DNA of 64,000 nt from positions 1 to 64,000 of the forward strand of contig NZ_JAHUWN010000019.1 of assembly GCF_019219025.1 (NCBI RefSeq). Direction: 5' to 3'. Shown in pieces: positions 111 through 17,564 of this stretch. This stretch comes from Bacillus sp. sid0103 (GTDB lineage: Bacteria > Bacillota > Bacilli > Bacillales_B > DSM-18226). The notes under the pieces were generated by a model. It had not been told where the DNA came from. It did no database searches and worked only from the letters and a program-made list of their open reading frames with translations. The number at the start of each line of letters is the position of its first letter. Position 1 is the stretch's first letter. Position numbers and translations under genes: made by a program.

Positions 111-281
111 TCTCTTCTACTCAACTAGTGAAAGAAGGAATGAAGGGATTTTATTGTAATATAAAGGTAATTATCAATAACTTTTAGGGGGGAAATAACT
201 CTTTAAGGAAATTGGTTGTCTATAAAAACAACAAAGTTTACAAAAACAGCCTACTTAATTAAAGATGTGAAGTAATATTAA

Positions 282-2783: not shown

Positions 2784-5700
2784 ATGAGAAAACATTTAAA
2801 AATTATTAGTTTAACACTTCTCTTTTGTATGTTAGTTAATATTATGCCTTTAAGTTGGTTTACGTCTGTGCCTTACTTTAAAACAGCAAAGGCCGATCTT
2901 AATCTGACTAGGGGAGAATTGAAGAATTTTGAGGGGATCATCGATGCGGGTTTTCCAAGGACCGTAGTCTTAAATAGAAATGGTACAGTATCATTATTTG
3001 GTAGTACTTATGGTGTAGAGAAAATATTAGAATGGTCTAATATTTCCTATGTTACCCAAGGTAGTTCTTTCATAGTGGGTTTAAAGAGTGATGGTACTGT
3101 TGTTGGAGTTGGCGATAATTCGATTGGCCAAATTAATGTAAATGATTGGTCTAATATAAAGGGCATTGCAGCAGGTAAGAATCATACAGTCGGCTTAAAA
3201 ACAGATGGTACTGTAACAGCGACAGGTGACAATTCTTTTGGACAAACAAATGTAAGTGGCTGGAAAGATATTGTTGCCGTATCAGCGGGGGTACGACATA
3301 CGGTTGGCTTAAAGAGTGATGGAACAGTGGTTGCGGTAGGTAATAATCTCTATGGGCAAACAAATGTTAGTAGTTGGCAAAATATAGTGGCTATATCAGT
3401 AGGAGATTTTTATACGGTAGGTTTAAAAAGCGATGGTACAGTTGTCGCTGTAGGAGACAATAATTCTGGCCAAAGAAATTTAAGTAGTTGGCAAAATATT
3501 GTAAGTATCTCAGCTGGAACTAACCATACAGTTGGTTTAAAAAGTGATGGAACCGTAGTAGCAGCAGGGAGAAATTCAGATGGACAATCAAATGTGGGAG
3601 ACTGGAAAAATATTGTTTCAATATCAGCAGATGAATACAATACTGTCGGATTAAAGAGTGATGGAACAGTAGTTGGAGTTGGCAATAATGGCTATGGCCA
3701 AATAAACTTCAATCCAGTAAACAATATTGTTTCAATTTCATCTGGTGCAAATCACACCGTTGGTTTGAAAGAGGATGGAACAGTAGTCGGTATGGATTAT
3801 AATACCCAGGGACAAATAAATGTAAGTGGCTGGAAGGATATAGTTGCTTTATCTGCTGCTGCGAATCATACTGTGGGTTTAAAGAGTGATGGAACAGTAG
3901 TAGCAGTAGGAAGTAATCAATACGGTCAACTAAATGTTAGTGGATGGACTGATATCGTAGCGGTCTCAACTGCAAGTACACATACCGTGGGTCTAAAAAG
4001 AGACGGAACAGTGGTTGGGGTTGGAGATAATGGTTATGGTGAGCTAAATTTTAGCGATTGGAAAGACATAGTTGCTCTTTCATCTAGTTATTGGAATACA
4101 GTTGGTTTAAAAAAGGATGGAACCGTTGTATTTGCTGGAGATAATCGTTACGGACGTATATATGTTGGTGATTGGACAGATATTGTTGCTATAACATCTG
4201 GAAATGATCATGTTGTTGGGTTGAAGAAAGATGGGACGGTAGTAACAACAGGTAATGGCTCTGCTGGTCAGCGCAATACAGGTGATTGGAAGGGTATCGT
4301 AGACATTGCGGCAGGTATGGATTTTACAGTAGGCCTAAAAAGTGATGGGACAGTAGTTGGTGTTGGAAATAATCCTTATGGTCAAGTAAGTCTAGAAAGT
4401 TGGAAAAATATTAAAGATATTTCAGCGAACGAATATCAAACAGTGGGGCTTAGAAATGACGGGACCATAATTAATTCAAATAATTATACATATCCAAATG
4501 AAGTTATTCACCCCCAGATTAACATTAATAAAAATGTTATAAAGCCAAACGATAACTTAAAAATTACTTTTTCTAAAGATAAATATTATAAATTAACTGA
4601 CCCAGGGATTTCCTTGAGTGGGGGAATCACTTTACCTGATGGGAAGTTTGAAGAAGTTAACGATCTAGATTATGAATTCAATTATATAGTTAAGCCGACT
4701 GATAGTGGAATCGTTAATGTTTCTGTCCCTGGAATAACAGATTTCTATGGTAATAGTTTAGTAAAAAATGACTATTTTAGAGTAATTCCATTACAATCAA
4801 TTAAAACTTCGAAGTCCTTAGTAAGTTCAGGCGATAAGGTAACGATTACTGCTACCTTTTATGAGAGTGTAAAACCTGGTTTCCAGCTTTCTTTAGGTGG
4901 GGCAGTGGATTTAAAGCCTACTTCAATGACTGAAGTGGCTGGAAGTAATGGAACAAAATTTATACTATCTTATACTATTCCTTATAACTATAAAGAAGGT
5001 ACTATTCATGCTTCACTAAAAAATGTAGAAACAGTTAGTGGTGTGTTTTTTAATCGTTATACCGAACAAAACGTTTTTACAAAGCAAAATCGATTGGCGC
5101 CGATTAGCTCTCTTACAGCCTCTAAAGAAAAAGCAAAAATTGGTGATGTTGTAACAGTTACTGCAAATTTTATGGAAAGTATTAAAAATGGTGTCCAGCT
5201 TTCATTTGATGGAGCTGGAGAAATGGAACCTGTTGTCATGAGTGAGGTAGCAGGCAGTAATGGAACGAAGTATACGTACGATTATACTGTTCTAGAAGGA
5301 TTTACTGGTAACATTAATGCTCATCTCAAAGAAGTATACGATCAAAATAACAAGCTGTCACAAGAATTTGTTAGTAACAATTTGTTTATGGTTGATGGAA
5401 TTAGGTCAAGTTTAAAAAGCTTAACAGCTTCAACTGCTTCAGCAAAGTTAGGAGATAAAGTATTACTGACTGCAGTGTTTGATGAGCCGATAAAACCAAA
5501 CTTTACTCTATCATTAAATAATGGTGTTAATTTACAAAATGTTTCTATGAATGAGGTAGAGGACTCAAACTCTACTATATTTAACTATGAATATGTGGTG
5601 AAGGAAGGCGACCTAGGATCCATTCATGCGAATATTGAAGGGATTGAGGATTTAGCAGGCAATATCTCACCAGCTTATAGTAAAGATGATGTATTTCACA

Positions 5701-8700
5701 CAGATGGTATAAATCCTGCTATTCTTTCCGTTGAATCAGAAGAGAAAGAATATGAAGTAGGGGACTATGCTCATATTATTGCTACTTTTACTGAACCCGT
5801 AAAACCGGGTGTTAAACTTAAATTATCTGGTGGAATAGATAATGAAGAGTATACCATGAGTGAGGTTCAGGGAAGTAATGGTTTAGAGTATGAAATCTAC
5901 TATGAAATTAAAGAGGGTCAGCATGGAGTGGTATACGGCCTTTTATCAAACATAGTCGATTTAGCTGGTAATGAAGTTACTTATGATCAAAAGAAGATTT
6001 TTTATGCAAGTGATCCTTCAAATGCAAATTTAGCTAGTATCACTGTCAGTGATGGAAGTAATAGCCACCCACTTACACCTGGATTCTCTTCAGAAATGGA
6101 TACTTATTCTGTTTACTTACCAAGTAATGTAACTTGTATCTTTTTAAGTGGAGAAAGCCAGGATAGTAAAGCTACCGTTGAAGGTAGCGGCTTAAAGAAC
6201 CTTGTTCAAGGTGAAAATACATTTATTTTAAAAATAACTGCAAGTAATTTAAATACGAAGTATTATAGAGTAATTATTAATGTTACGGATGATACAAAAC
6301 CTGAAATTACAGGTGTAGTTGATCAGACAGTTGGAATGAATACTCCTTTTGATGCAATGGATGGAGTAAAAGCTACGGATAATGTTGATGGCGATCTTAC
6401 TTCACTGATCATGGTGGAGGGGTTTGTCGATATCAGCAAGCCAGGTGTTTATAAGCTTAAATATACTATTACAGATAAGGCTGGAAATAGTTCAACCATT
6501 AAGCGAAATATTACGGTTGTAGATAACATTCCGCCTGCCAAGCCAATTGTTGATTCATTCGGTGACAACCAAAATATGATTACGGGGACTGCCGAGGAAA
6601 ATGGATATGTTGTTGCAGAAGTAAACGGTTCGCAGATTGGTAGTAGTCCAGTAGGGAATGGTGGATTATTCGGAATTTGGGTAAATAAACAATCTGCTGG
6701 TACTAAAATCAATCTATATGTAATAGATGCTTATGGGAATTCTGGTCAAGCCACTACAATTGAGGTTCTAGACATTTCTGCTCCTGAAAAACCTCAACCA
6801 AATAAGGTGACAGATAAAGATAGTATTGTTACCGGGCAAGGTGAAGCAGGGACTGCAATAAAAGTAAAAGTAAATGGTTCTGAGATAGGTTCAGGAACAG
6901 TAGAAGAAGATAGCAGCTTTACAGTGGCAATTCCAGTGCAAAAGGCAGGTACTGAACTAGCTATTAGTGCAACTGATAAGGCTGGAAATGAGAGTGAAAC
7001 AACCACACTAGTAGTAGAAGACGTAACCGCCCCAGAAATGCCAGTAGTTAATGAGATAACTGACAAGGACACTGCAGTAACAGGTGAAGCAGAAACAGGG
7101 TCTAAAGTTGAAGTTAATGTAAATGGTTTAGTTATCGGGACAGGAACAGCTGGAGAGGATGGCCAATTTAATGTTACTATTCCATCACAAACAGCAGGCA
7201 TGGTGCTAAACATTACTGCAACAGATAATGCTGGTAACATGAGCAGTTCTTCAACAATCGTGGTTAAGGATGGTACTGCGCCATTAGCACCAATAGTAGA
7301 AAATGTATCCGATATATCAAGAATGGTATGGGGAAAGTCAGAAGTAGGTTCAATCGTGACTGTAACAATAGGTCAATCCCAATATACTACGATTGCAGAG
7401 TATCCTTTTGGTGATTATGAAGTAACTATTCCAGCACAAAAGGAAGGAACTGTGATAGAGGTAACAGCTACAGATAGTGCTGGAAACATAAGTGATGCCA
7501 GAAAAGTAATCGTACAAGATGGAACTCCGCCGGCAGCACCGATAGTAAACGAAATTAATGACCAGTCATCTGAAGTAAGTGGAACAACAGAAGCTGGAGC
7601 AAAGGTATATGTAGTATATACATCACCACAATATGGAGTGTTGGTTAGTACGGGATATGCAGATGAAAATGGGAATTATCAAGTGATGATTCCAGTTCAA
7701 AGTGCTGGTTCCACTATCCAGGTAATAGCGGCAGATTCTATGGGAAATCAAAGTGAACCGACTAATATCGTGGTAAAAGATGCAACGGCTCCAAATACAC
7801 CGCAAGTAAATGAAGTAACTGACAAATCACAAGAAGTTTCTGGAACCTCTGAAGCAGGAGCAAAGGTTACGGTTAGAGTAGGGTTAATTGAGTATGGATT
7901 AACTGAATACACGGGGAAAGCAGATGAGAATGGGAATTTCCTTGTATCGATCCCTGCTCAACACGCTGGAACAGAAATAACAGTGTTTGTAACTGACGAG
8001 TCTGGAAACGTAAGTGAAAGTAATAAGGTAATCGTAAAAGATGTGACTGCACCAAATGCGCCGGAAATAGTAGTTGTAACTGATAAAGACACTAAAGTAA
8101 CCGGGAAAGCGGAAGCCGGTTCAAAAGTACAAGTTAAAGTAGAAAATTCAGTACTTGGTACAGGTACAGTTGGGGTAGATGGAAAGTTTAATATCAATAT
8201 CCCAGTCCAAAAAGCAGGAACTGAAATAAAATTTATTTCTACAGATAAAGCTGGAAACGTGAGTGAAACAACCACAGTGGTGGTAAAAGACGTAACCGCC
8301 CCAGGTAAGCCTGAAGTAAATGAAGTGACAGACAAGGACACTATAGTTACAGGACAAGCGGAAGCCGGATCAAAAGTAGAAGTGAAGGTAAATGGTTCAG
8401 TGATTGGCACTGGAACTGCCGGAGAAGATGGTCAATATAAAGTGGCGATTTCCGCTCAAAAGGCAGGCACAGAGTTAGTCATTGTTGCTATGGATCAGGC
8501 TGGGAATGTAAGTGAACCAACCGCAGTAGTAGTAAAAGATGTAACCGCCCCAGAAAAGCCTGCAGTAAATGAGGTAACCGACAAGGATACTTCAGTCACA
8601 GGACAAGCAGAGGCTGGATCAAAAGTAGAAGTAAAGGTAAATGGTTCAGTGATTGGGACTGGAACTGCCGGAGAAGATGGCCGCTATGAAGTGACAATTC

Positions 8701-11700
8701 CAGTACAACAAGCAGGCATTGAACTTGTTATTATTTCAACTGATAAAGCTGGTAATGTAAGTGAAGAAACTGCAGTAGTAGTAAAGGATGTAACAGCCCC
8801 AGAAAAACCTGAAGTAAATGAAGTAACGGACAAGGATACTTCTGTTACAGGAAAAGCGGAAGCAGGATCAAAAGTAGACGTGAAGGTAAATGGTTCCGTT
8901 ATTGGGACTGGAACTGCCGGAGAAGATGGTCAATATAGAGTGACTATTTCTGGGCAAAAGGCAGGCACCGAATTAGTCATTATTGCTACGGATAAGGCTG
9001 GCAATGTAAGCGAAAGAACCACAGTAGTGGTGAGGGACGTAACAGCCCCAGAAAAGCCTGAAGTAAAAGAAGTAACAGACAAGGATACTACTGTAACTGG
9101 ACAAGCCGAAACTGGATCAAAGGTAGAAGTGAAAGTAAATGGTTCGGTGATTGGTAGTGGAACTGTAGGAGAAGATGGTCAATATAAAGTAATCATCTCC
9201 GCGCAAAAAGCAGGAACAGAATTAGTCATTAGTGCTACAGATAAAGCTGGAAATGTGAGTGAAACAACAACAGCAGTGGTAAGAGACGTAACAGCTCCAG
9301 AAAAACCTGTAGTATATGAAGTAACTGATAAGGGTACGACAGTTACAGGACAAACGGAAGCTGGATCAAAGGTAGAAGTAAAGGTAAATGGTTCAGTGAT
9401 TGGTACTGGAACTGCTGGAGAAGATGGTCAATATAAAGTGACCATTGACGTGCAAAAGGCAGGCACAGAATTAGAAATAGTTGCAATGGATAAAGCTGGC
9501 AATGTAAGCGAAACAACCACAGTAGTGGTGAAGGACGTAACTGCCCCGGATAAACCAGAAGTAAATGAAGTGACCGACAAAGATACTACAGTTACCGGAC
9601 AAGCAGAAGCCAGGTCAAAAGTAGAAGTAAAGGTAAATGGTTCAGATATCGGCTCTGGAACTGCTGGAGAAGATGGCCAATATAAAGTGACCATTGAGGT
9701 GCAAAAGGCAGGCACCGAATTAGTCATTGTGGCTACTGATAAGGCTGGTAATGTAAGTGAAACAACGACAGTAGTGGTAAGAGACGTAACCGCCCCAGAA
9801 AAGCCAGTAGTAAATGAAGTAACCGATAAGGATACTACAGTAACAGGACAGGCGGAAGCTGGATCAAAAGTAGAGGTAAAGGTAAATGGTTCAGTGATTG
9901 GTGAGGGAACTGCCGGAGAAGATGGCCAATTTACAGTGACCATTTCCGAGCAAAAGGCAGGGACCGAGTTAGTCATTGTTGCTACTGACAAGGCTGGCAA
10001 TGTAAGTGAAACAAGCACAGTCGTGATAAGAGACGCAACAGCGCCAGAGCAGCCAGTGGTAAATGAAGTTACAGATAAAGATACGTCTGTTACTGGACAA
10101 GCGGAAGCTGGATCGAAAGTAGAAGTGAAAGTAAATGGCTCAGTGATTGGTACTGGAACTGCTGGAGAAGATGGTCAATATAAAGTGAGCATTGACGTGC
10201 AAAAGGCAGGCACCGAATTAGAAATAGTTGCAACGGATAAGGCTGGCAATGTAAGTGAAACAACGACAGTAATGGTAAGAGACGTATCCGGCCCAGAAAA
10301 GCCAATAGTAAATGAAGTAACCGATAAGGATACTACAGTTACAGGACAAGCGGAAGCTGGATCAAAGGTAGAAGTAAAGGCAAATGGTTCAGTGATTGGT
10401 GAGGGAACTGCCGGAGAAGATGGTCAATATAATGTGATCATCTCCTCGCAAAAAGCAGGCACCGAATTAGTCATTATTGCAACGGATAAGGCAGGCAATG
10501 TAAGTGAAACAACCACAGTAGTGGTGAGAGACGTAACAGCCCCAGAAAAGCCTGAAGTAAATGAAGTAACGGACAAGGATACTACAGTTACTGGACAAGG
10601 AGAGGCTGGATCAAAAGTAGAAGTGAAAGTAAATGGCTCAGTGATTGGTACTGGAACTGCCGAGGAAGATGGACAATATAAAGTGACCATTGACGTGCAA
10701 AAGGCAGGCACAGAGTTAGTCATTATTGCTACTGATAATTCTGGCAATGTAAGTGAAGAAACTGCAGTAGTGGTGAAAGATGTAACCGCCCCTAAGAAAC
10801 CAGTAGTAAGTCTAGTAAGCGATAGAGATACAACTATAACTGGTGAAGCAGAAGCGGGATCCAAAATCGAAGTGAAGGTAAATGGCTCAGTAATTGGTAC
10901 AGGAACAGCAGGACAAGATGGTAAATATAAAGTTACCATTCGAGTTCAGAAAGCTGGAACGGTATTAGTGATCATCGCAACAGACGCTGCCGGAAATGAA
11001 AGTGAAGGAACCACCATAAAAGTTATAGACAAAACAGCTCCATCAGTTTTAACAGTAAATACAGTTTCAGACAAGTCAAAGGAAGTAACTGGCAAGACTG
11101 AAGCGGGAGCAACTGTTTCGATCCTAATCGGCACAAAGACTTATGCAGCTAAAGCTGATCCAAATGGAAACTTCAAAGTGATCATTCCTATCCTAAAAGC
11201 AGGCACAAAGTTAATCGTAACTGCCAAGGATGCAGCGGGTAATGCGAGTGTCGCAAAAAGTATCACCGTTATTGATAAAACGCCACCGGTTGCTCCAACC
11301 GTTACCACTGTTACGGACTTAGCAAAACTGGTAACTGGTAAAGCAGAAGCAGGAGCCATTGTTACTGTTACAATTGGAACCAAAAAGTACATCGCCAAAG
11401 CGGATGCTAAGGGTAACTATAAGGTAACGATTCCTGTCCAAAAAGCAGGTACAAAGGTAATTGTGACAGTGAAAGATGCAGCAGGAAATGTAAGTGTAGC
11501 TAAGAGTGTGATTGTCATAGACAAAACAGCTCCATTAGCACCGAAAATTAAAACTACAGTAAAAAGCACAACAAAAGAAGTTACTGGAACTGCTGAAGCC
11601 TACTCTACGATAACAATAAAAGTCGGTAGCAAAGTCATCGGTACAGCCGAGGCTGATTCCAAAGGAAACTTCAAAGTGAAAATCAAAGCACAGAAGAAGA

Positions 11701-11777
11701 AAACGGTTTTAAGTGTGACAGCAACTGATAAAGCGAAGAATGTAAGTAAGGCAGCTATAGTAGTAAAAGTGAAATAA
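2784..11777 (+). CDS. Giant secreted RCC1 / Ig-repeat surface protein
   Basis: 2997 aa. An N-terminal signal peptide ends near residue 37 (SVPYFKTAKA). Domains in order: about 14 RCC1-like repeats of ~39 aa (about 60-565; core VGLKSDGTVVAVGDN), likely a beta-propeller; five Ig-like modules of ~100 aa (about 575-1075); a cadherin-like beta-sandwich (about 1080-1168; VYLPSNVT); a DUF5011-like Ig domain (about 1169-1247; KATDNVDGDLT); then 21 Big_6-type Ig repeats of ~83 aa to the C-terminus. Repeats 8-17 are nearly identical. There is no LPXTG, SLH or GW anchor, so it is probably secreted or held by its basic C-terminus (last repeats rich in Lys). Likely an adhesin or matrix stalk; function unproven. 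ATG start; the Shine-Dalgarno is weak (GGGGATAA). Confidence 0.9.
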   Translation: MRKHLKIISLTLLFCMLVNIMPLSWFTSVPYFKTAKADLNLTRGELKNFEGIIDAGFPRTVVLNRNGTVSLFGSTYGVEKILEWSNISYVTQGSSFIVGLKSDGTVVGVGDNSIGQINVNDWSNIKGIAAGKNHTVGLKTDGTVTATGDNSFGQTNVSGWKDIVAVSAGVRHTVGLKSDGTVVAVGNNLYGQTNVSSWQNIVAISVGDFYTVGLKSDGTVVAVGDNNSGQRNLSSWQNIVSISAGTNHTVGLKSDGTVVAAGRNSDGQSNVGDWKNIVSISADEYNTVGLKSDGTVVGVGNNGYGQINFNPVNNIVSISSGANHTVGLKEDGTVVGMDYNTQGQINVSGWKDIVALSAAANHTVGLKSDGTVVAVGSNQYGQLNVSGWTDIVAVSTASTHTVGLKRDGTVVGVGDNGYGELNFSDWKDIVALSSSYWNTVGLKKDGTVVFAGDNRYGRIYVGDWTDIVAITSGNDHVVGLKKDGTVVTTGNGSAGQRNTGDWKGIVDIAAGMDFTVGLKSDGTVVGVGNNPYGQVSLESWKNIKDISANEYQTVGLRNDGTIINSNNYTYPNEVIHPQININKNVIKPNDNLKITFSKDKYYKLTDPGISLSGGITLPDGKFEEVNDLDYEFNYIVKPTDSGIVNVSVPGITDFYGNSLVKNDYFRVIPLQSIKTSKSLVSSGDKVTITATFYESVKPGFQLSLGGAVDLKPTSMTEVAGSNGTKFILSYTIPYNYKEGTIHASLKNVETVSGVFFNRYTEQNVFTKQNRLAPISSLTASKEKAKIGDVVTVTANFMESIKNGVQLSFDGAGEMEPVVMSEVAGSNGTKYTYDYTVLEGFTGNINAHLKEVYDQNNKLSQEFVSNNLFMVDGIRSSLKSLTASTASAKLGDKVLLTAVFDEPIKPNFTLSLNNGVNLQNVSMNEVEDSNSTIFNYEYVVKEGDLGSIHANIEGIEDLAGNISPAYSKDDVFHTDGINPAILSVESEEKEYEVGDYAHIIATFTEPVKPGVKLKLSGGIDNEEYTMSEVQGSNGLEYEIYYEIKEGQHGVVYGLLSNIVDLAGNEVTYDQKKIFYASDPSNANLASITVSDGSNSHPLTPGFSSEMDTYSVYLPSNVTCIFLSGESQDSKATVEGSGLKNLVQGENTFILKITASNLNTKYYRVIINVTDDTKPEITGVVDQTVGMNTPFDAMDGVKATDNVDGDLTSLIMVEGFVDISKPGVYKLKYTITDKAGNSSTIKRNITVVDNIPPAKPIVDSFGDNQNMITGTAEENGYVVAEVNGSQIGSSPVGNGGLFGIWVNKQSAGTKINLYVIDAYGNSGQATTIEVLDISAPEKPQPNKVTDKDSIVTGQGEAGTAIKVKVNGSEIGSGTVEEDSSFTVAIPVQKAGTELAISATDKAGNESETTTLVVEDVTAPEMPVVNEITDKDTAVTGEAETGSKVEVNVNGLVIGTGTAGEDGQFNVTIPSQTAGMVLNITATDNAGNMSSSSTIVVKDGTAPLAPIVENVSDISRMVWGKSEVGSIVTVTIGQSQYTTIAEYPFGDYEVTIPAQKEGTVIEVTATDSAGNISDARKVIVQDGTPPAAPIVNEINDQSSEVSGTTEAGAKVYVVYTSPQYGVLVSTGYADENGNYQVMIPVQSAGSTIQVIAADSMGNQSEPTNIVVKDATAPNTPQVNEVTDKSQEVSGTSEAGAKVTVRVGLIEYGLTEYTGKADENGNFLVSIPAQHAGTEITVFVTDESGNVSESNKVIVKDVTAPNAPEIVVVTDKDTKVTGKAEAGSKVQVKVENSVLGTGTVGVDGKFNINIPVQKAGTEIKFISTDKAGNVSETTTVVVKDVTAPGKPEVNEVTDKDTIVTGQAEAGSKVEVKVNGSVIGTGTAGEDGQYKVAISAQKAGTELVIVAMDQAGNVSEPTAVVVKDVTAPEKPAVNEVTDKDTSVTGQAEAGSKVEVKVNGSVIGTGTAGEDGRYEVTIPVQQAGIELVIISTDKAGNVSEETAVVVKDVTAPEKPEVNEVTDKDTSVTGKAEAGSKVDVKVNGSVIGTGTAGEDGQYRVTISGQKAGTELVIIATDKAGNVSERTTVVVRDVTAPEKPEVKEVTDKDTTVTGQAETGSKVEVKVNGSVIGSGTVGEDGQYKVIISAQKAGTELVISATDKAGNVSETTTAVVRDVTAPEKPVVYEVTDKGTTVTGQTEAGSKVEVKVNGSVIGTGTAGEDGQYKVTIDVQKAGTELEIVAMDKAGNVSETTTVVVKDVTAPDKPEVNEVTDKDTTVTGQAEARSKVEVKVNGSDIGSGTAGEDGQYKVTIEVQKAGTELVIVATDKAGNVSETTTVVVRDVTAPEKPVVNEVTDKDTTVTGQAEAGSKVEVKVNGSVIGEGTAGEDGQFTVTISEQKAGTELVIVATDKAGNVSETSTVVIRDATAPEQPVVNEVTDKDTSVTGQAEAGSKVEVKVNGSVIGTGTAGEDGQYKVSIDVQKAGTELEIVATDKAGNVSETTTVMVRDVSGPEKPIVNEVTDKDTTVTGQAEAGSKVEVKANGSVIGEGTAGEDGQYNVIISSQKAGTELVIIATDKAGNVSETTTVVVRDVTAPEKPEVNEVTDKDTTVTGQGEAGSKVEVKVNGSVIGTGTAEEDGQYKVTIDVQKAGTELVIIATDNSGNVSEETAVVVKDVTAPKKPVVSLVSDRDTTITGEAEAGSKIEVKVNGSVIGTGTAGQDGKYKVTIRVQKAGTVLVIIATDAAGNESEGTTIKVIDKTAPSVLTVNTVSDKSKEVTGKTEAGATVSILIGTKTYAAKADPNGNFKVIIPILKAGTKLIVTAKDAAGNASVAKSITVIDKTPPVAPTVTTVTDLAKLVTGKAEAGAIVTVTIGTKKYIAKADAKGNYKVTIPVQKAGTKVIVTVKDAAGNVSVAKSVIVIDKTAPLAPKIKTTVKSTTKEVTGTAEAYSTITIKVGSKVIGTAEADSKGNFKVKIKAQKKKTVLSVTATDKAKNVSKAAIVVKVK
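6526..11777 (+). repeat. Tandem ~250-bp repeats encoding 21 Ig domains
   Basis: Each unit encodes a domain that runs from TAPEKPxVNEVTDKDT through VTGQAEAGSKVEVKVNGSVIG to DKAGNVSETTTVVVKDV. Between about 8290 and 10800 neighbouring units are nearly identical at DNA level, while the first seven and the last four are diverged. This is the pattern expected of a core kept alike by recombination. The array is a likely place for copy-number change or misassembly. Confidence 0.9.
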
Positions 11778-14878: not shown

Positions 14879-14932
14879 TCGACTTTCATGAAGACATTAA
14901 ATCGAGCTGATGGTTGTAAAATAACTAAAAAC

Positions 14933-14974
14933 AAAGCCCTTTCATGTATGGATGACAATGAAAGGGCTTTTTGT
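14933..14974 (+). terminator. Terminator of the amino acid ABC operon
   Basis: 13-bp stem AAAGCCCTTTCAT / ATGAAAGGGCTTT followed by TTGTTT. Confidence 0.9.
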
Positions 14975-15153
14975 TTCGGACCATGTATATGGAAATAATA
15001 AATGAAATTTTGCAGGAAATGGGACATCTTTCTAGAAATTTATCATAACTTGATGTAAATAGGAACATAAGGGTGCTGGTGTATCATAGGCTAATTCATT
15101 TCCTAAAGATGAATCATGACTGCACTAAAAAATCTATATGTTGAGGTAATCTT

Positions 15154-15798
15154 ATGGGTGAGGAAGATGTGAAGTTTCAAACACTTCATGATCATTATAA
15201 AGATACTTTTGCTTTACAGAGGGAATACTTGAAGTTAAGAGACCGATTATTCGTTTATACTTTGCTGGTTTTCGCGGCAATGTTTATTCTGACGATCATA
15301 CCTGTTGATCCCTCAAAAGCTGTTTCCGACATTGTTAAGGAACAACTCAAAATCACATTGAGCATAAATCGAGATGAAATTCACACGATGCTATGGTTTG
15401 TTTTATTGTGTTTGGTGGTCAGGTATTTTCAAACTAACATAGTAGTTGAACGGCAATACCATTATATCCATAAGGTCGAGGCCGAATTAAATTCATGTTA
15501 CGATCCTCTGGGAGATATGTTCACTAGAGAAGGAAAGTCATACCTGAACAGCTTTAAGCTGTTTAGTTCCATAGCTGGTTATTTGTATAAATTGGTTTTT
15601 CCGTTATTGCTGATTATCATAACAAGTTTCAAAATATTTACGGAACTAATGACGAAAACATTCTTTGATTTAACTTTAGTGTTGGATATTGTTTTTTGTG
15701 TATTGATTTTTGTTTATACCGTAGTTTATTCTTTTTCGTTGCACTTCAAAAAAATGAAGAAATTATGGTTAAAAGTTAAAAGTATATTGAGAATTTAA
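15154..15798 (+). CDS. Four-TM membrane protein of a putative TIR cassette
   Basis: 214 aa with four predicted membrane spans (about 30-48, 82-98, 140-160, 172-192). A cytoplasmic amphipathic N-terminus (HYKDTFALQREYLKLRDRLF) and a Lys-rich C-terminal tail (HFKKMKKLWLKVK) flank them. I do not recognise the family. The layout recalls small 4-TM or SLATT/S-4TM-type effectors found beside nucleotide-sensing defence genes, but no specific motif proves this. It starts at ATG behind GAGGTAA, 136 bp before the TIR-like gene on the same strand. It might be a membrane-disrupting effector, or an anchor or inhibitor of the TIR-like partner. Confidence 0.65.
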   Translation: MGEEDVKFQTLHDHYKDTFALQREYLKLRDRLFVYTLLVFAAMFILTIIPVDPSKAVSDIVKEQLKITLSINRDEIHTMLWFVLLCLVVRYFQTNIVVERQYHYIHKVEAELNSCYDPLGDMFTREGKSYLNSFKLFSSIAGYLYKLVFPLLLIIITSFKIFTELMTKTFFDLTLVLDIVFCVLIFVYTVVYSFSLHFKKMKKLWLKVKSILRI

Positions 15799-15882
15799 AG
15801 CTGTGCACTGGTTAACTAAAACTTTCATTTTTCTAAATTTATTTTCTTGAAAATTTTATAATAATCTAAAATATGGAAAAAA

Positions 15883-15891
15883 TGATATAAT
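15883..15891 (+). promoter_or_regulatory. Extended -10 promoter before the TIR-like gene
   Basis: TGATATAAT is a consensus extended -10 (TGNTATAAT). No good -35 lies 17 bp upstream. It would give the TIR-like gene its own transcript, separate from the 4-TM gene. Confidence 0.5.
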
Positions 15892-15933
15892 ATTTGTATA
15901 AATATATTGTTCATTACATTTGTTGGAGGAGTT

Positions 15934-16941
15934 ATGACTCAAATCAAACCAAAAGTATTTATAGGATCTGCAAGAGAATCCATTGAATATGTTAATGCGA
16001 TTCATAATTCACTCGCTCATGTTGCTGAAGTAACTCCTTGGTCAGCGGGTGCATTTCGCCCACTTGAATACAATATGGAAAATCTTGAACGACTATTAGA
16101 TGGAAATGATTTTGCAGTATTTGTATTTTCACCCGATGACATTATAAATATTCGAGGCACCTTAACATTTACTACAAGGGACAATACTTTGTTTGAAATG
16201 GGGTTATTCTGGGGAAGGTTAAGAAGAGGACGAGTTTTTTACATTATTCCCAGAAATACACCTGAAAGTGAGGGTGCTAAAGGGTTTCGTCTACCTTCAG
16301 ATTTGGAAGGACTTGCTGTATTAAGGTACGAAATTCGAAGTGATAATAACTACGATGCTGCAGTAAATATTGCTTGTAGTTTTATTAAAAGAAAAATCGA
16401 AGAATTGGGCATCTTTCAGGATCCATCGAGGCTCTTAGCGGAAGCCCAAACAAACATGGATAAAGACTATGCCTTGATTCGTATACTAAGAACGCTATCT
16501 AAAAGGCTCTTAGTGGATCCAACAAAAAAGTTTGAATATCTACAAGAAGCTGTTAGGAACGCTTATCAAGCCCCAGGTTCCTATTATGTTGAAGGAATAG
16601 GAGTTTGGCAAGCGGAGGGCAGCGATGGTTTGAGACAGATTGCTGGAAATGATGGCAAAAGAAAATTTTACACATTTGATGTTAATGAAAATAGAGGGTA
16701 TACGGATCGAATTATTGTCATTGATTGTTTTTTACAAAGTACTGAGCTGGTTTTACAAAAAAATAGGAATGCCTTTGATAATACTTATGTATTATGCTAT
16801 CCTATAGGAAACCAGTTAGTTCTGACGGTTGCCATATCCGGAAGAAGGGCATTAAGTCAAGAACAGATTGACGATATATTTCTTAATAATTATAATCTTT
16901 TGAGTGTGATAAATAATATTTTTGGAGGTGCTTCTTCATGA
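15934..16941 (+). CDS. TIR-like (CAP12/Pycsar-type) protein with GAF-like C-terminus
   Basis: 335 aa from the ATG at 15934, preceded by GGAGGAG. Residues ~5-145 match the predicted TIR-like nucleotide-binding family (PF10137 type, as in Cap12 and TIR-STING): KPKVFIGSARES, PWSAGAFRP, FAVFVFSPDD, and DNTLFEMGLFWGRLRRGRVFYI, where E88 would be the catalytic Glu of an NAD+ hydrolase. Residues ~185-335 look GAF-like: YYVEGIGVW, VLCYPIGNQLVLTVAI, then a helix LSQEQIDDIFLNNYNLL. That suggests a built-in ligand sensor in place of STING or a cyclase partner. No CD-NTase or nucleotide cyclase is nearby, so this is not standard CBASS or Pycsar. It overlaps the next gene by 4 bp. NADase activity is inferred. 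Confidence 0.8.
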   Translation: MTQIKPKVFIGSARESIEYVNAIHNSLAHVAEVTPWSAGAFRPLEYNMENLERLLDGNDFAVFVFSPDDIINIRGTLTFTTRDNTLFEMGLFWGRLRRGRVFYIIPRNTPESEGAKGFRLPSDLEGLAVLRYEIRSDNNYDAAVNIACSFIKRKIEELGIFQDPSRLLAEAQTNMDKDYALIRILRTLSKRLLVDPTKKFEYLQEAVRNAYQAPGSYYVEGIGVWQAEGSDGLRQIAGNDGKRKFYTFDVNENRGYTDRIIVIDCFLQSTELVLQKNRNAFDNTYVLCYPIGNQLVLTVAISGRRALSQEQIDDIFLNNYNLLSVINNIFGGASS

Positions 16942-17108
16942 AAAGAACAGTGATATCGAAGGAAGAAAAAAATTCGTATAAACTTGGAGAAATTGTTACA
17001 GGTGTAAGAGCAGTTATTACCTCTAAATATGGAAAAGAAGAATCAGGAAAAATTGTTTATAAACGAAAAGCTGATTATAGGGAAGACCCGTTTAGGAAAC
17101 GAGCTTAA
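16938..17108 (+). CDS. Small basic protein, 56 aa, third gene of the TIR cassette
   Basis: The start codon overlaps the TIR stop (ATGA), the classic sign of translational coupling. The product begins MKRTVISKEEKNSYKLGEIV, is rich in Lys and Arg, has no membrane span, and ends EDPFRKRA. No family recognised. Coupling suggests a stoichiometric partner of the TIR-like protein, such as an inhibitor, adaptor or antitoxin-like subunit. A terminator follows. Confidence 0.65.
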   Translation: MKRTVISKEEKNSYKLGEIVTGVRAVITSKYGKEESGKIVYKRKADYREDPFRKRA

Positions 17109-17130
17109 ATAACATAGATCATCATTTTAA

Positions 17131-17155
17131 AGAGAGTGGAACTCTCTTTTTTTTG
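17131..17155 (+). terminator. Terminator of the TIR cassette
   Basis: Stem AGAGAGT-GGA-ACTCTCT followed by eight T residues. Confidence 0.9.
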
Positions 17156-17172
17156 TTTATTAACATATTTTA

Positions 17173-17309
17173 GTAATCCGATTTTCCTTCTTTCAGCACA
17201 GCTTGTAAGTTTTTCATTACTTGATGTGCATGCTCTGTCTACCAACGTCTACAACTTCTCCTGTTTTCAAATCAACTGGAATTTGCCCCGAAGTAAATAA
17301 TAGAGTATC
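17173..17309 (-). pseudogene. ridA: Broken ridA (YjgF/YabJ family) fragment
   Basis: The minus strand encodes DTLLFTSGQIPVDLKTGEVV followed by DVGRQS, then after a frameshift QVMKNLQAVLKEGKSDY. These are consecutive parts of RidA, the enamine/imine deaminase. The N-terminus, the rest of the C-terminus and an open frame are all missing. The fragment abuts the terminator of the TIR cassette, so the cassette may have landed beside or within a once intact ridA. Confidence 0.85.
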
Positions 17310-17564
17310 CAACTTTATTTTTGTGATTTTGCTCCCTTCCCTCTTTCTTTTTCATAATCAAGAAGTGTTTATTAAGTGCTATAAAAATATTGATCAGTAT
17401 TCATTCCTATTTTTAAATTAAAGGTACCGCCATAAAACCAACGCAAATACAATAAATGAAACATAATCGTTTATTTTTTCAATATTAAGGAAATAATTAG
17501 TCATATTTATATATTCTTTAATTGAAGCAATTTATTTGAGTTGGGATTAATAGGAGTGGTACCA

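What the first reader, a model, noticed from the sequence alone, without database searches (positions are those of the whole stretch)
15154..17108. Three-gene TIR-like cassette that matches no standard CBASS, Pycsar or Thoeris layout
A 4-TM protein, a TIR-like (CAP12/PF10137-type) protein fused to a GAF-like C-terminus, and a translationally coupled 56-aa protein form a compact unit between two terminators, next to a truncated ridA. The TIR-like domain keeps the candidate catalytic Glu (E88 in LFEMGLF). There is no nucleotidyltransferase, cyclase, STING or ThsA-like gene. I infer an NAD+-depleting defence or abortive-infection module in which the GAF-like part senses the trigger directly, with the membrane protein as second effector or regulator. 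The TIR-like match is recognised by motif; the GAF-like call and the role are inference.
Basis: partly seen in the sequence, partly recalled or inferred. Interest (0 to 1): 0.85.

Follow-up and report, generated by a model that had tools for sequence, protein, structure and literature searches.

The report
Thoeris-like cassette with TIR-GAF sensor
Three neighbouring bacterial genes look like an anti-virus alarm: a TIR enzyme with a sensor-like domain, a tiny partner protein made together with it, and, in the closest relatives, an interchangeable membrane protein that would do the killing.

Summary
The three genes are real. The middle protein is a PF10137 TIR fused to a GAF fold (AlphaFold2 plus structural alignment). 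The 56-aa gene is its constant partner: a small gene follows the TIR-GAF gene in 81 of 81 full-length loci. In 344 Paenibacillus-order genomes, 150 of 150 listed GAF places are followed by a small overlapping ORF (138 matched by profile, 12 by eye, 4 of those 12 of doubtful kinship). Small-protein divergence tracks the GAF half much more than the TIR half.

The membrane gene is not part of that core but sits in an effector slot. In the nine closest relatives this slot holds a type II Thoeris ThsA (TM-macro, 2), the PADLOC candidate PDC-M50A (6 intact) or a broken PDC-M50A (1). Two species with shared flanks have different effectors. PF08937 (ThsB) was found in 0 of 6 of these genomes, and the window's membrane family follows a ThsB-like TIR in the one other genome found.

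I read it as a Thoeris-like cassette in which TIR-GAF plus the small protein replace ThsB as sensor and signal maker, and the 4-TM protein is the effector. No activity was tested. Stand-alone TIR-GAF pairs in Paenibacillus remain unexplained. New variant of a known kind.

The parts
14934..14978 (+). hairpin with T-run after the ABC-permease gene; upstream edge of the unit
   Evidence: sequence AAAGCCCTTTCAT...ATGAAAGGGCTTTTTG; fold of 14925-14985 is -20 kcal/mol
15154..15798 (+). membrane protein, 214 aa, about 4 TM; presumed effector
   Evidence: 59 homologs; homolog L129 1060-1731 (46% id) directly follows a ThsB-like TIR gene; same slot as ThsA/PDC-M50A in relatives
15883..15891 (+). extended -10-like TGaTATAAT, possible own promoter of TIR-GAF
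   Evidence: read directly from sequence; not tested
15934..16416 (+). TIR domain (PF10137), residues 1-161; candidate catalytic Glu88 codon 16195-16197
16417..16941 (+). helical linker plus GAF domain, residues 162-335, and stop
   Evidence: invariant Y285, C288, P290
16938..17108 (+). 56-aa small partner protein, ATGA overlap with the TIR-GAF stop
17129..17149 (+). intrinsic terminator, downstream edge
17170..17345 (-). frame-broken ridA-like remnant, not part of the system
   Evidence: by eye from three-frame translation

Best explanation
This is a three-gene, Thoeris-like abortive-infection cassette. TIR-GAF (15934-16941) is the sensor and signal synthase. A trigger acts through the GAF half and its co-translated 56-aa partner. 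The TIR then converts NAD+ into an ADP-ribose-type signal, by analogy with type II Thoeris a His-ADPR-like molecule. The membrane protein (15154-15798) is the effector that the signal gates to disrupt the membrane. The small protein most likely binds the GAF/linker and holds the enzyme off or couples it to the trigger. Shown here: domains and folds, constant pairing with the small gene, the effector slot and its different occupants, absence of a PF08937 match. Inferred: catalysis, signal identity, gating, the sign of the small protein's action, phage defence itself.
For: (1) Slot: in the nine loci with TIR-GAF 78-83% identical to the window's, the upstream same-strand gene is ThsA TM-macro in 2 (PF20016 E 2.5e-63 and 4.9e-60; PADLOC ThsA 9.5e-103 and 2.7e-106), intact PDC-M50A in 6 (PADLOC 4; tblastn 2 more), broken PDC-M50A in 1; in the window the 4-TM protein. 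(2) L004 and L005 share flanking genes at 90-97% identity, hence one chromosomal site, but carry PDC-M50A and ThsA respectively. (3) ThsB_TIR PF08937: 0 of 6 genomes, while G016, known to have one, rang. TIR_2 PF13676: 0 of 6. (4) Control: the same ThsA family in L200 (64% id) lies between two ThsB genes. (5) The window's membrane family in L129 follows a ThsB-like TIR (PF08937 E 3.9e-9; PADLOC ThsB 3.4e-12, PDC-M50B 1.5e-8). (6) His-ADPR gates TM-macro ThsA (PMC12847820 and PMC12948488, passages). (7) Small gene: 81 of 81 and 150 of 150 listed places. Small-core distance follows GAF (partial r 0.80, bootstrap 0.70-0.85) more than TIR (0.14), n=61, with a step near the domain boundary.
Against: Outside the Neobacillus-type loci no ThsA or PDC-M50A neighbour was found: of 69 scanned neighbours (87 collected, near-duplicates dropped) 2 matched ThsA and 4 PDC-M50A, and tblastn places these only in Neobacillus-type TIR-GAF loci, plus the separate Thoeris locus L200. 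So TIR-GAF may act alone elsewhere. One Paenibacillus subfamily sits at a fixed site. The window's membrane family was seen beside a TIR in only one other genome. The window's genome is not held, so a ThsB elsewhere in it cannot be excluded (none in the 64 kb by tblastn with three ThsB queries). PF13676 detects one canonical ThsB only at 7e-4, so a divergent ThsB could be missed. At the shared L004/L005 site other genes differ too (a 327-aa gene upstream in L005, a 170-aa gene downstream in L004). A possible promoter lies between genes 1 and 2. Within families the small-GAF versus small-TIR contrast is weaker (0.55 vs 0.47; 0.57 vs 0.32).
Confidence: 0.6

Rival explanations
1. TIR-GAF is itself the killing effector: a GAF-sensed trigger assembles the TIR and depletes NAD+; the membrane gene is a second, separate defence gene.
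For: PF10137 relatives Cap12 and PycTIR are effectors by name in PADLOC, NCBIfam and PDB. DUF4062, an alternative head on a related GAF half, is reported as a TIR-like NADase causing abortive infection (PMC13174449, abstract and passages). Among the neighbours scanned outside Neobacillus-type loci there was no ThsA or PDC-M50A.
Against: ThsA without a PF08937 match beside TIR-GAF in N. mesonae, and different effectors at one site, are not expected if the neighbour were irrelevant.
Confidence: 0.22
2. TIR-GAF plus the small gene is a toxin-antitoxin pair: the small protein neutralises the TIR until it is lost or titrated; the membrane genes only travel along.
For: Toxin-first, overlapping genes; no listed GAF place without a small ORF behind it (150 of 150); nine start-to-stop small ORFs among 14 inspected loci that lack an intact TIR-GAF.
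Against: Three of those nine lie behind GAF remnants, and a 60-codon ORF outlasts a 335-codon one, so the asymmetry is partly expected from decay. It does not explain the effector slot. No toxicity data.
Confidence: 0.12
3. A non-defence stress or sporulation regulator using TIR chemistry, kept vertically in parts of Paenibacillaceae.
For: In 12 of 16 neighbourhoods compared the same upstream gene recurs, in 10 the same downstream gene; 151 of 344 genomes of the order match the GAF profile; no match in phage records, one full-length among 33 matching plasmid records.
Against: Patchy in the Neobacillus family (12 of 193 with a long match, one of them broken), decayed copies, different sites, defence-type neighbours in Neobacillus-type loci.
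Confidence: 0.06

Closest known systems
Type II Thoeris (ThsB TIR + TM-macro ThsA)
   Same: Two relatives carry a near-full-length TM-macro ThsA 73-76 bp upstream of TIR-GAF; TIR plus membrane effector logic
   Different: No PF08937 match; the TIR is PF10137 with a GAF domain and a constant small partner; the window's effector is an unclassified 4-TM protein
PDC-M50 (PADLOC candidate; models PDC-M50A and PDC-M50B, the latter matching a ThsB-like TIR)
   Same: Six relatives have intact PDC-M50A in the effector slot
   Different: TIR-GAF + small gene stand beside it instead of a ThsB-like TIR; the window has a different membrane family
CBASS Cap12 (TIR-STING) and PycTIR
   Different: GAF instead of STING; no cyclase or nucleotidyltransferase gene beside it
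Swarozyc (DUF4062 NADase; PMC13174449)
   Same: DUF4062 heads occur on a related GAF half, followed by an overlapping small gene, in three genomes
   Different: The preprint's main text has no occurrence of 'GAF' or 'small protein'; the window's head is PF10137; kinship of the DUF4062-type small gene to the window's is not supported

Membership tests
CAP12/Pycsar TIR domain family (PF10137) | sequence match above the curated cutoff | tested here: met
   79.1 bits vs cutoff 24.7
CAP12/Pycsar TIR domain family (PF10137) | catalytic Glu conserved | tested here: met
   E88 invariant in 48 sequences; aligned with the Glu of PycTIR and Cap12; that this Glu is catalytic is recalled, not tested
CBASS Cap12 / Pycsar PycTIR effector | adjacent CD-NTase or cyclase gene | tested here: not met
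   none among the window's neighbouring ORFs (and by eye); across 82 loci no neighbour family (70 aa or more) recurs in more than 20 except the small gene
GAF domain | GAF fold | tested here: met
Thoeris | ThsB-type TIR (PF08937) | tested here: not met
   the TIR is PF10137; none within the window by tblastn; 0 of 6 relatives' genomes
Thoeris | ThsA effector | tested here: inconclusive
   no match in the window; present in 2 of the 9 closest relatives
Thoeris | TIR-made ADPR signal activates the effector | not testable with these tools
   needs biochemistry
PDC-M50 | PDC-M50A next to PDC-M50B | tested here: not met
   window membrane protein has no PADLOC match; relatives with M50A have no PF08937 match (4 of 4 searched)
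Swarozyc | DUF4062 domain | tested here: not met
   the window TIR matches only PF10137 in Pfam; DUF4062 heads occur in L126-L128
Toxin-antitoxin | partner neutralises a toxic protein | not testable with these tools
   only gene order, overlap and orphan pattern seen

The most novel reading that the evidence does not exclude
A new family of TIR immune sensors. An NADase-type head (PF10137 TIR, perhaps also DUF4062) is fused to a GAF domain whose constant, co-translated peptide partner acts as a removable pin. Infection displaces the pin, the TIR makes an ADPR-type signal, and interchangeable membrane effectors (TM-macro ThsA, 2-TM PDC-M50A, 4-TM) respond. This would be a plug-compatible replacement of ThsB by a different sensor, plus a new class of small immune partner proteins.
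Probability: 0.33. Interest if true: 0.88.

Novelty: new variant of a known kind. Interest (0 to 1): 0.74.

Why it matters
How bacterial TIR proteins sense infection is known for only a few systems. Here the sensor half is a compact GAF domain with a dedicated short partner behind it at every place examined, so the sensing step could be taken apart with two small genes. TIR-GAF standing where ThsB would be, beside an authentic ThsA, gives a direct prediction: the N. mesonae TIR-GAF should make a signal that its TM-macro ThsA recognises. Different effectors at one chromosomal site suggest modular immune wiring. The small protein matched no Pfam family convincingly and no PDB sequence and would be a new family to study.

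Tried and rejected
Three-gene unit conserved everywhere: rejected. The window's membrane family was in none of the 81 loci (blastp), in 2 of 193 genomes of the Neobacillus family (one of them a weak match with stops), 1 weak match of 398 Bacillota, 0 of 43 (no positive control there), no plasmid, phage or viral-contig match.

CBASS or Pycsar membership: rejected for lack of a partner enzyme gene.

A defined fold for the 56-aa protein: the model has only a low-confidence beta-hairpin (pLDDT 64); Pfam gave six one-member, weak hits over 49 members, none for the window's; no PDB match.

One small-protein family for all: only partly supported. Bacillaceae-type and Paenibacillaceae-type small proteins align as profiles over 27 columns (probability 68%, E 5e-5). 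The DUF4062-type small proteins do not (probability 1.7% and 0.7%); they share position, size and a GPSV motif. The three divergent ones in L175, L193, L194 are by eye.

Orphan small genes as proof of an antitoxin: weakened. Of 14 inspected loci, nine have a start-to-stop small ORF; three of these (L186-L188) lie behind GAF remnants; L146, L148, L150, L152 and L184 are partial, broken or unclear.

Other PADLOC matches among neighbours: 49 families matched at least one of 69 proteins at 1e-5, 25 were shown; besides ThsA and PDC-M50A these were single or double hits (subtilase, Stk2, mad6, PD-T4-6, Csa3), not followed up.

Mobile carriage: 1 of 33 matching plasmid records has a match over 80% of the query, no phage record; of 9 viral-contig loci one (L081) is full length, eight match only the TIR part.

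Mirror-distance result: 61 of 81 loci (L012 left out as frameshifted, L029, L035 and L041 not in the script's set, the rest thinned at 90% identity); family groups assigned by me; linkage and relatedness not fully removed.

Flank comparison used short flanks for L202, L203, L205.

Literature: searches returned nothing. Searches (20 of 23 listed; 15 of 83 listed) gave no listing that names a TIR-GAF protein; the three papers were seen only as listings. [quoted passage not shown] it could already describe parts of this.

Full report

The small gene is the constant partner. A protein search found 203 TIR-GAF relatives (120 listed) but only 8 close relatives of the 56-aa protein. Reading the DNA shows why: the small gene diverges fast but is there. 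I fetched 80 of 197 genome loci plus nine viral-contig loci, of which one (L081) is full length. A small ORF directly follows the TIR-GAF gene in 81 of 81 of these full-length loci: 78 by script, the other three (L029, L035, L041). In one of them (L012) TIR-GAF itself is frameshifted. Of the 78, 54 start at the 4-base overlap by a rule that prefers that position.

In 344 genomes of the order of one Paenibacillus relative, a GAF profile matched 151 genomes; 150 places in 143 genomes were listed. A profile of the small core paired with 138 of them. I inspected the other 12: eight have a clear core (L169, L190-L192, L195-L198), three a doubtful one (L175, L193, L194), and one is the DUF4062 type (L126). 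Typical Paenibacillaceae cores read GPSVEGxDKEYVKVxSGKVxxxKPSFA; the window's is the Bacillaceae form GVRAVITSKYGKEESGKIVYKRKADYREDPF. As profiles the two types align over 27 columns (probability 68%, E 5e-5), so kinship is likely but not overwhelming. No Pfam family matches convincingly, no PDB sequence, and alone it models only as a weak hairpin.

A head swap. In three genomes (L126-L128) a related GAF half carries a DUF4062 head instead (PF13271 E 1.2e-20 to 4.2e-19) and is again followed by an overlapping small gene of similar size with a GPSV motif. Kinship of these small genes to the TIR-GAF ones is not supported (and, whose profile did not include them, missed them). DUF4062 was recently reported as a TIR-like NADase in the antiphage system Swarozyc, triggered by phage portal (PMC13174449; abstract and searched passages). 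Eight positions of the GAF half, including Y285, C288 and P290, are invariant across 15 TIR-headed and 3 DUF4062-headed sequences.

The small protein goes with the GAF. Over 61 thinned loci, small-core distances correlate with GAF-half distances (raw 0.88; partial rank r 0.80 given TIR, bootstrap 0.70-0.85) and less with TIR-half distances (raw 0.62; partial 0.14). Along the protein the correlation is flat at 0.41-0.56 in windows within the TIR and 0.63-0.85 from window 141-180 on, which argues against simple linkage decay. Within my Bacillaceae (n=20) and Paenibacillaceae (n=41) groups the contrast shrinks (0.55 vs 0.47; 0.57 vs 0.32), so part of it is a between-group effect.

The membrane gene sits in an effector slot. 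Its own family is rare in the genomes searched and absent from the 81 loci, so it is not part of the core. But what lies in its place is telling. In the nine loci with TIR-GAF 78-83% identical to the window's, the upstream same-strand gene is: ThsA with macro domain in L005 and L008 (PF20016 E 2.5e-63 and 4.9e-60; PADLOC ThsA 9.5e-103 and 2.7e-106); PADLOC PDC-M50A, with two hydrophobic stretches by eye, intact in L001-L004 and in L202 and L205 (tblastn 86% and 82%); a broken PDC-M50A in L203. A TIR-GAF tree places the two ThsA loci with L004, an M50A locus (support 87/94). L004 and L005 share neighbouring genes (427 aa 96.7%, 266 aa 89.9%, 159 aa 90.6%): one chromosomal site with two different effectors, although a 327-aa gene upstream in L005 and a 170-aa gene downstream in L004 also differ there. 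No other pair of these loci showed shared flanks in that test (two lone matches between ABC-transporter-type genes aside), which held only short flanks for L202, L203 and L205; so the cassette also moves.

ThsB is not seen. A whole-genome search for ThsB_TIR (PF08937) in the genomes of L001-L005 and L008 gave 0 of 6, while G016, which has one, rang. TIR_2 (PF13676) gave 0 of 6 (it rang in 4 of 14 named control genomes). As a control, the same ThsA family in Bacillus sp. FJAT-29790 (L200, 64% identical) lies between two ThsB genes, one of which PF08937 detects at 2.7e-13, the other PF13676 only at 7e-4, so a divergent ThsB could be missed. That genome also has a TIR-GAF pair about 300 kb away, without an adjacent ThsA or PDC-M50A. 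In N. mesonae, then, TIR-GAF stands where ThsB would be expected. The window's membrane family has a similar signature: its relative in L129 (46% identical) directly follows a ThsB-like TIR gene (PF08937 3.9e-9; PADLOC ThsB 3.4e-12 and PDC-M50B 1.5e-8). Three different membrane-protein families, each paired elsewhere with a ThsB-like TIR (for PDC-M50A only through PADLOC's model names), thus occupy the slot upstream of TIR-GAF.

Mechanism. TM-macro ThsA is reported to be gated by TIR-made His-ADPR (PMC12847820 and PMC12948488, passages); its macro domain binds ADPR and imidazole adenine dinucleotide (PMC11204291, abstract and one section). By analogy the TIR-GAF proteins of Neobacillus should make an ADPR-type signal. 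I infer the same for the window, with the 4-TM protein as effector. The role of the small protein (pin, adaptor or bait) is inference; co-translation favours stoichiometric assembly. Nine intact small ORFs without an intact TIR-GAF, some near genes that by eye look like transposases, Gabija (L151, L186) or Dnd (L147), fit a harmless left-behind partner, but three lie behind GAF remnants and short ORFs outlast long ones.

What does not fit. Outside the Neobacillus-type loci I found no ThsA or PDC-M50A next to TIR-GAF (69 of 87 collected neighbours scanned; tblastn over all loci held at that point), and one Paenibacillus subfamily has recurring flanks (same upstream gene in 12, same downstream gene in 10 of 16 neighbourhoods). 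Either TIR-GAF acts alone there by NAD+ loss, or the effector lies elsewhere, or the function is different. Prevalence: 12 of 193 genomes of the Neobacillus family have a long match, one of them frameshifted; 24 of 104 in the family of L014's genome (E below 1e-90).

Novelty. No paper in the held library joins TIR and GAF in a defence context by my searches, but a directly relevant preprint on TIR signalling systems is not held. I file this as a new variant of TIR-based (Thoeris-like) immunity with an unusual sensor module.

Noticed in passing
L135 3998-5076 (-), and similar places in about 20 of 104 genomes: A stand-alone 160-aa PF10137-like TIR with the Glu motif is directly followed by a second TIR-like protein in which by eye the Glu is lost (NILVLIGLCIG), beside a gene that reads like the spore protease gpr; possible active/inactive TIR pair.
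   Followed up: partly
L138 3814-4359 (-): An in-frame ORF joins a TIR N-terminal part to a small-protein C-terminal core, without the GAF; natural deletion product or minimal form.
   Followed up: no
L147, L151, L186: Small genes without an intact TIR-GAF lie near genes that by eye look like Dnd (L147) and Gabija (L151, L186) defence genes.
   Followed up: no
window 2784-11777: 2997-aa secreted-looking protein with RCC1-like and many tandem Ig-like repeats (by eye).
   Followed up: no
L006, L007 and L012: L006 and L007 TIR-GAF pairs (62-66% identical to the window's) have no ThsA, PDC-M50A or 4-TM match in the held DNA; in L012 (69%) TIR-GAF is frameshifted while the small gene is intact.
   Followed up: partly
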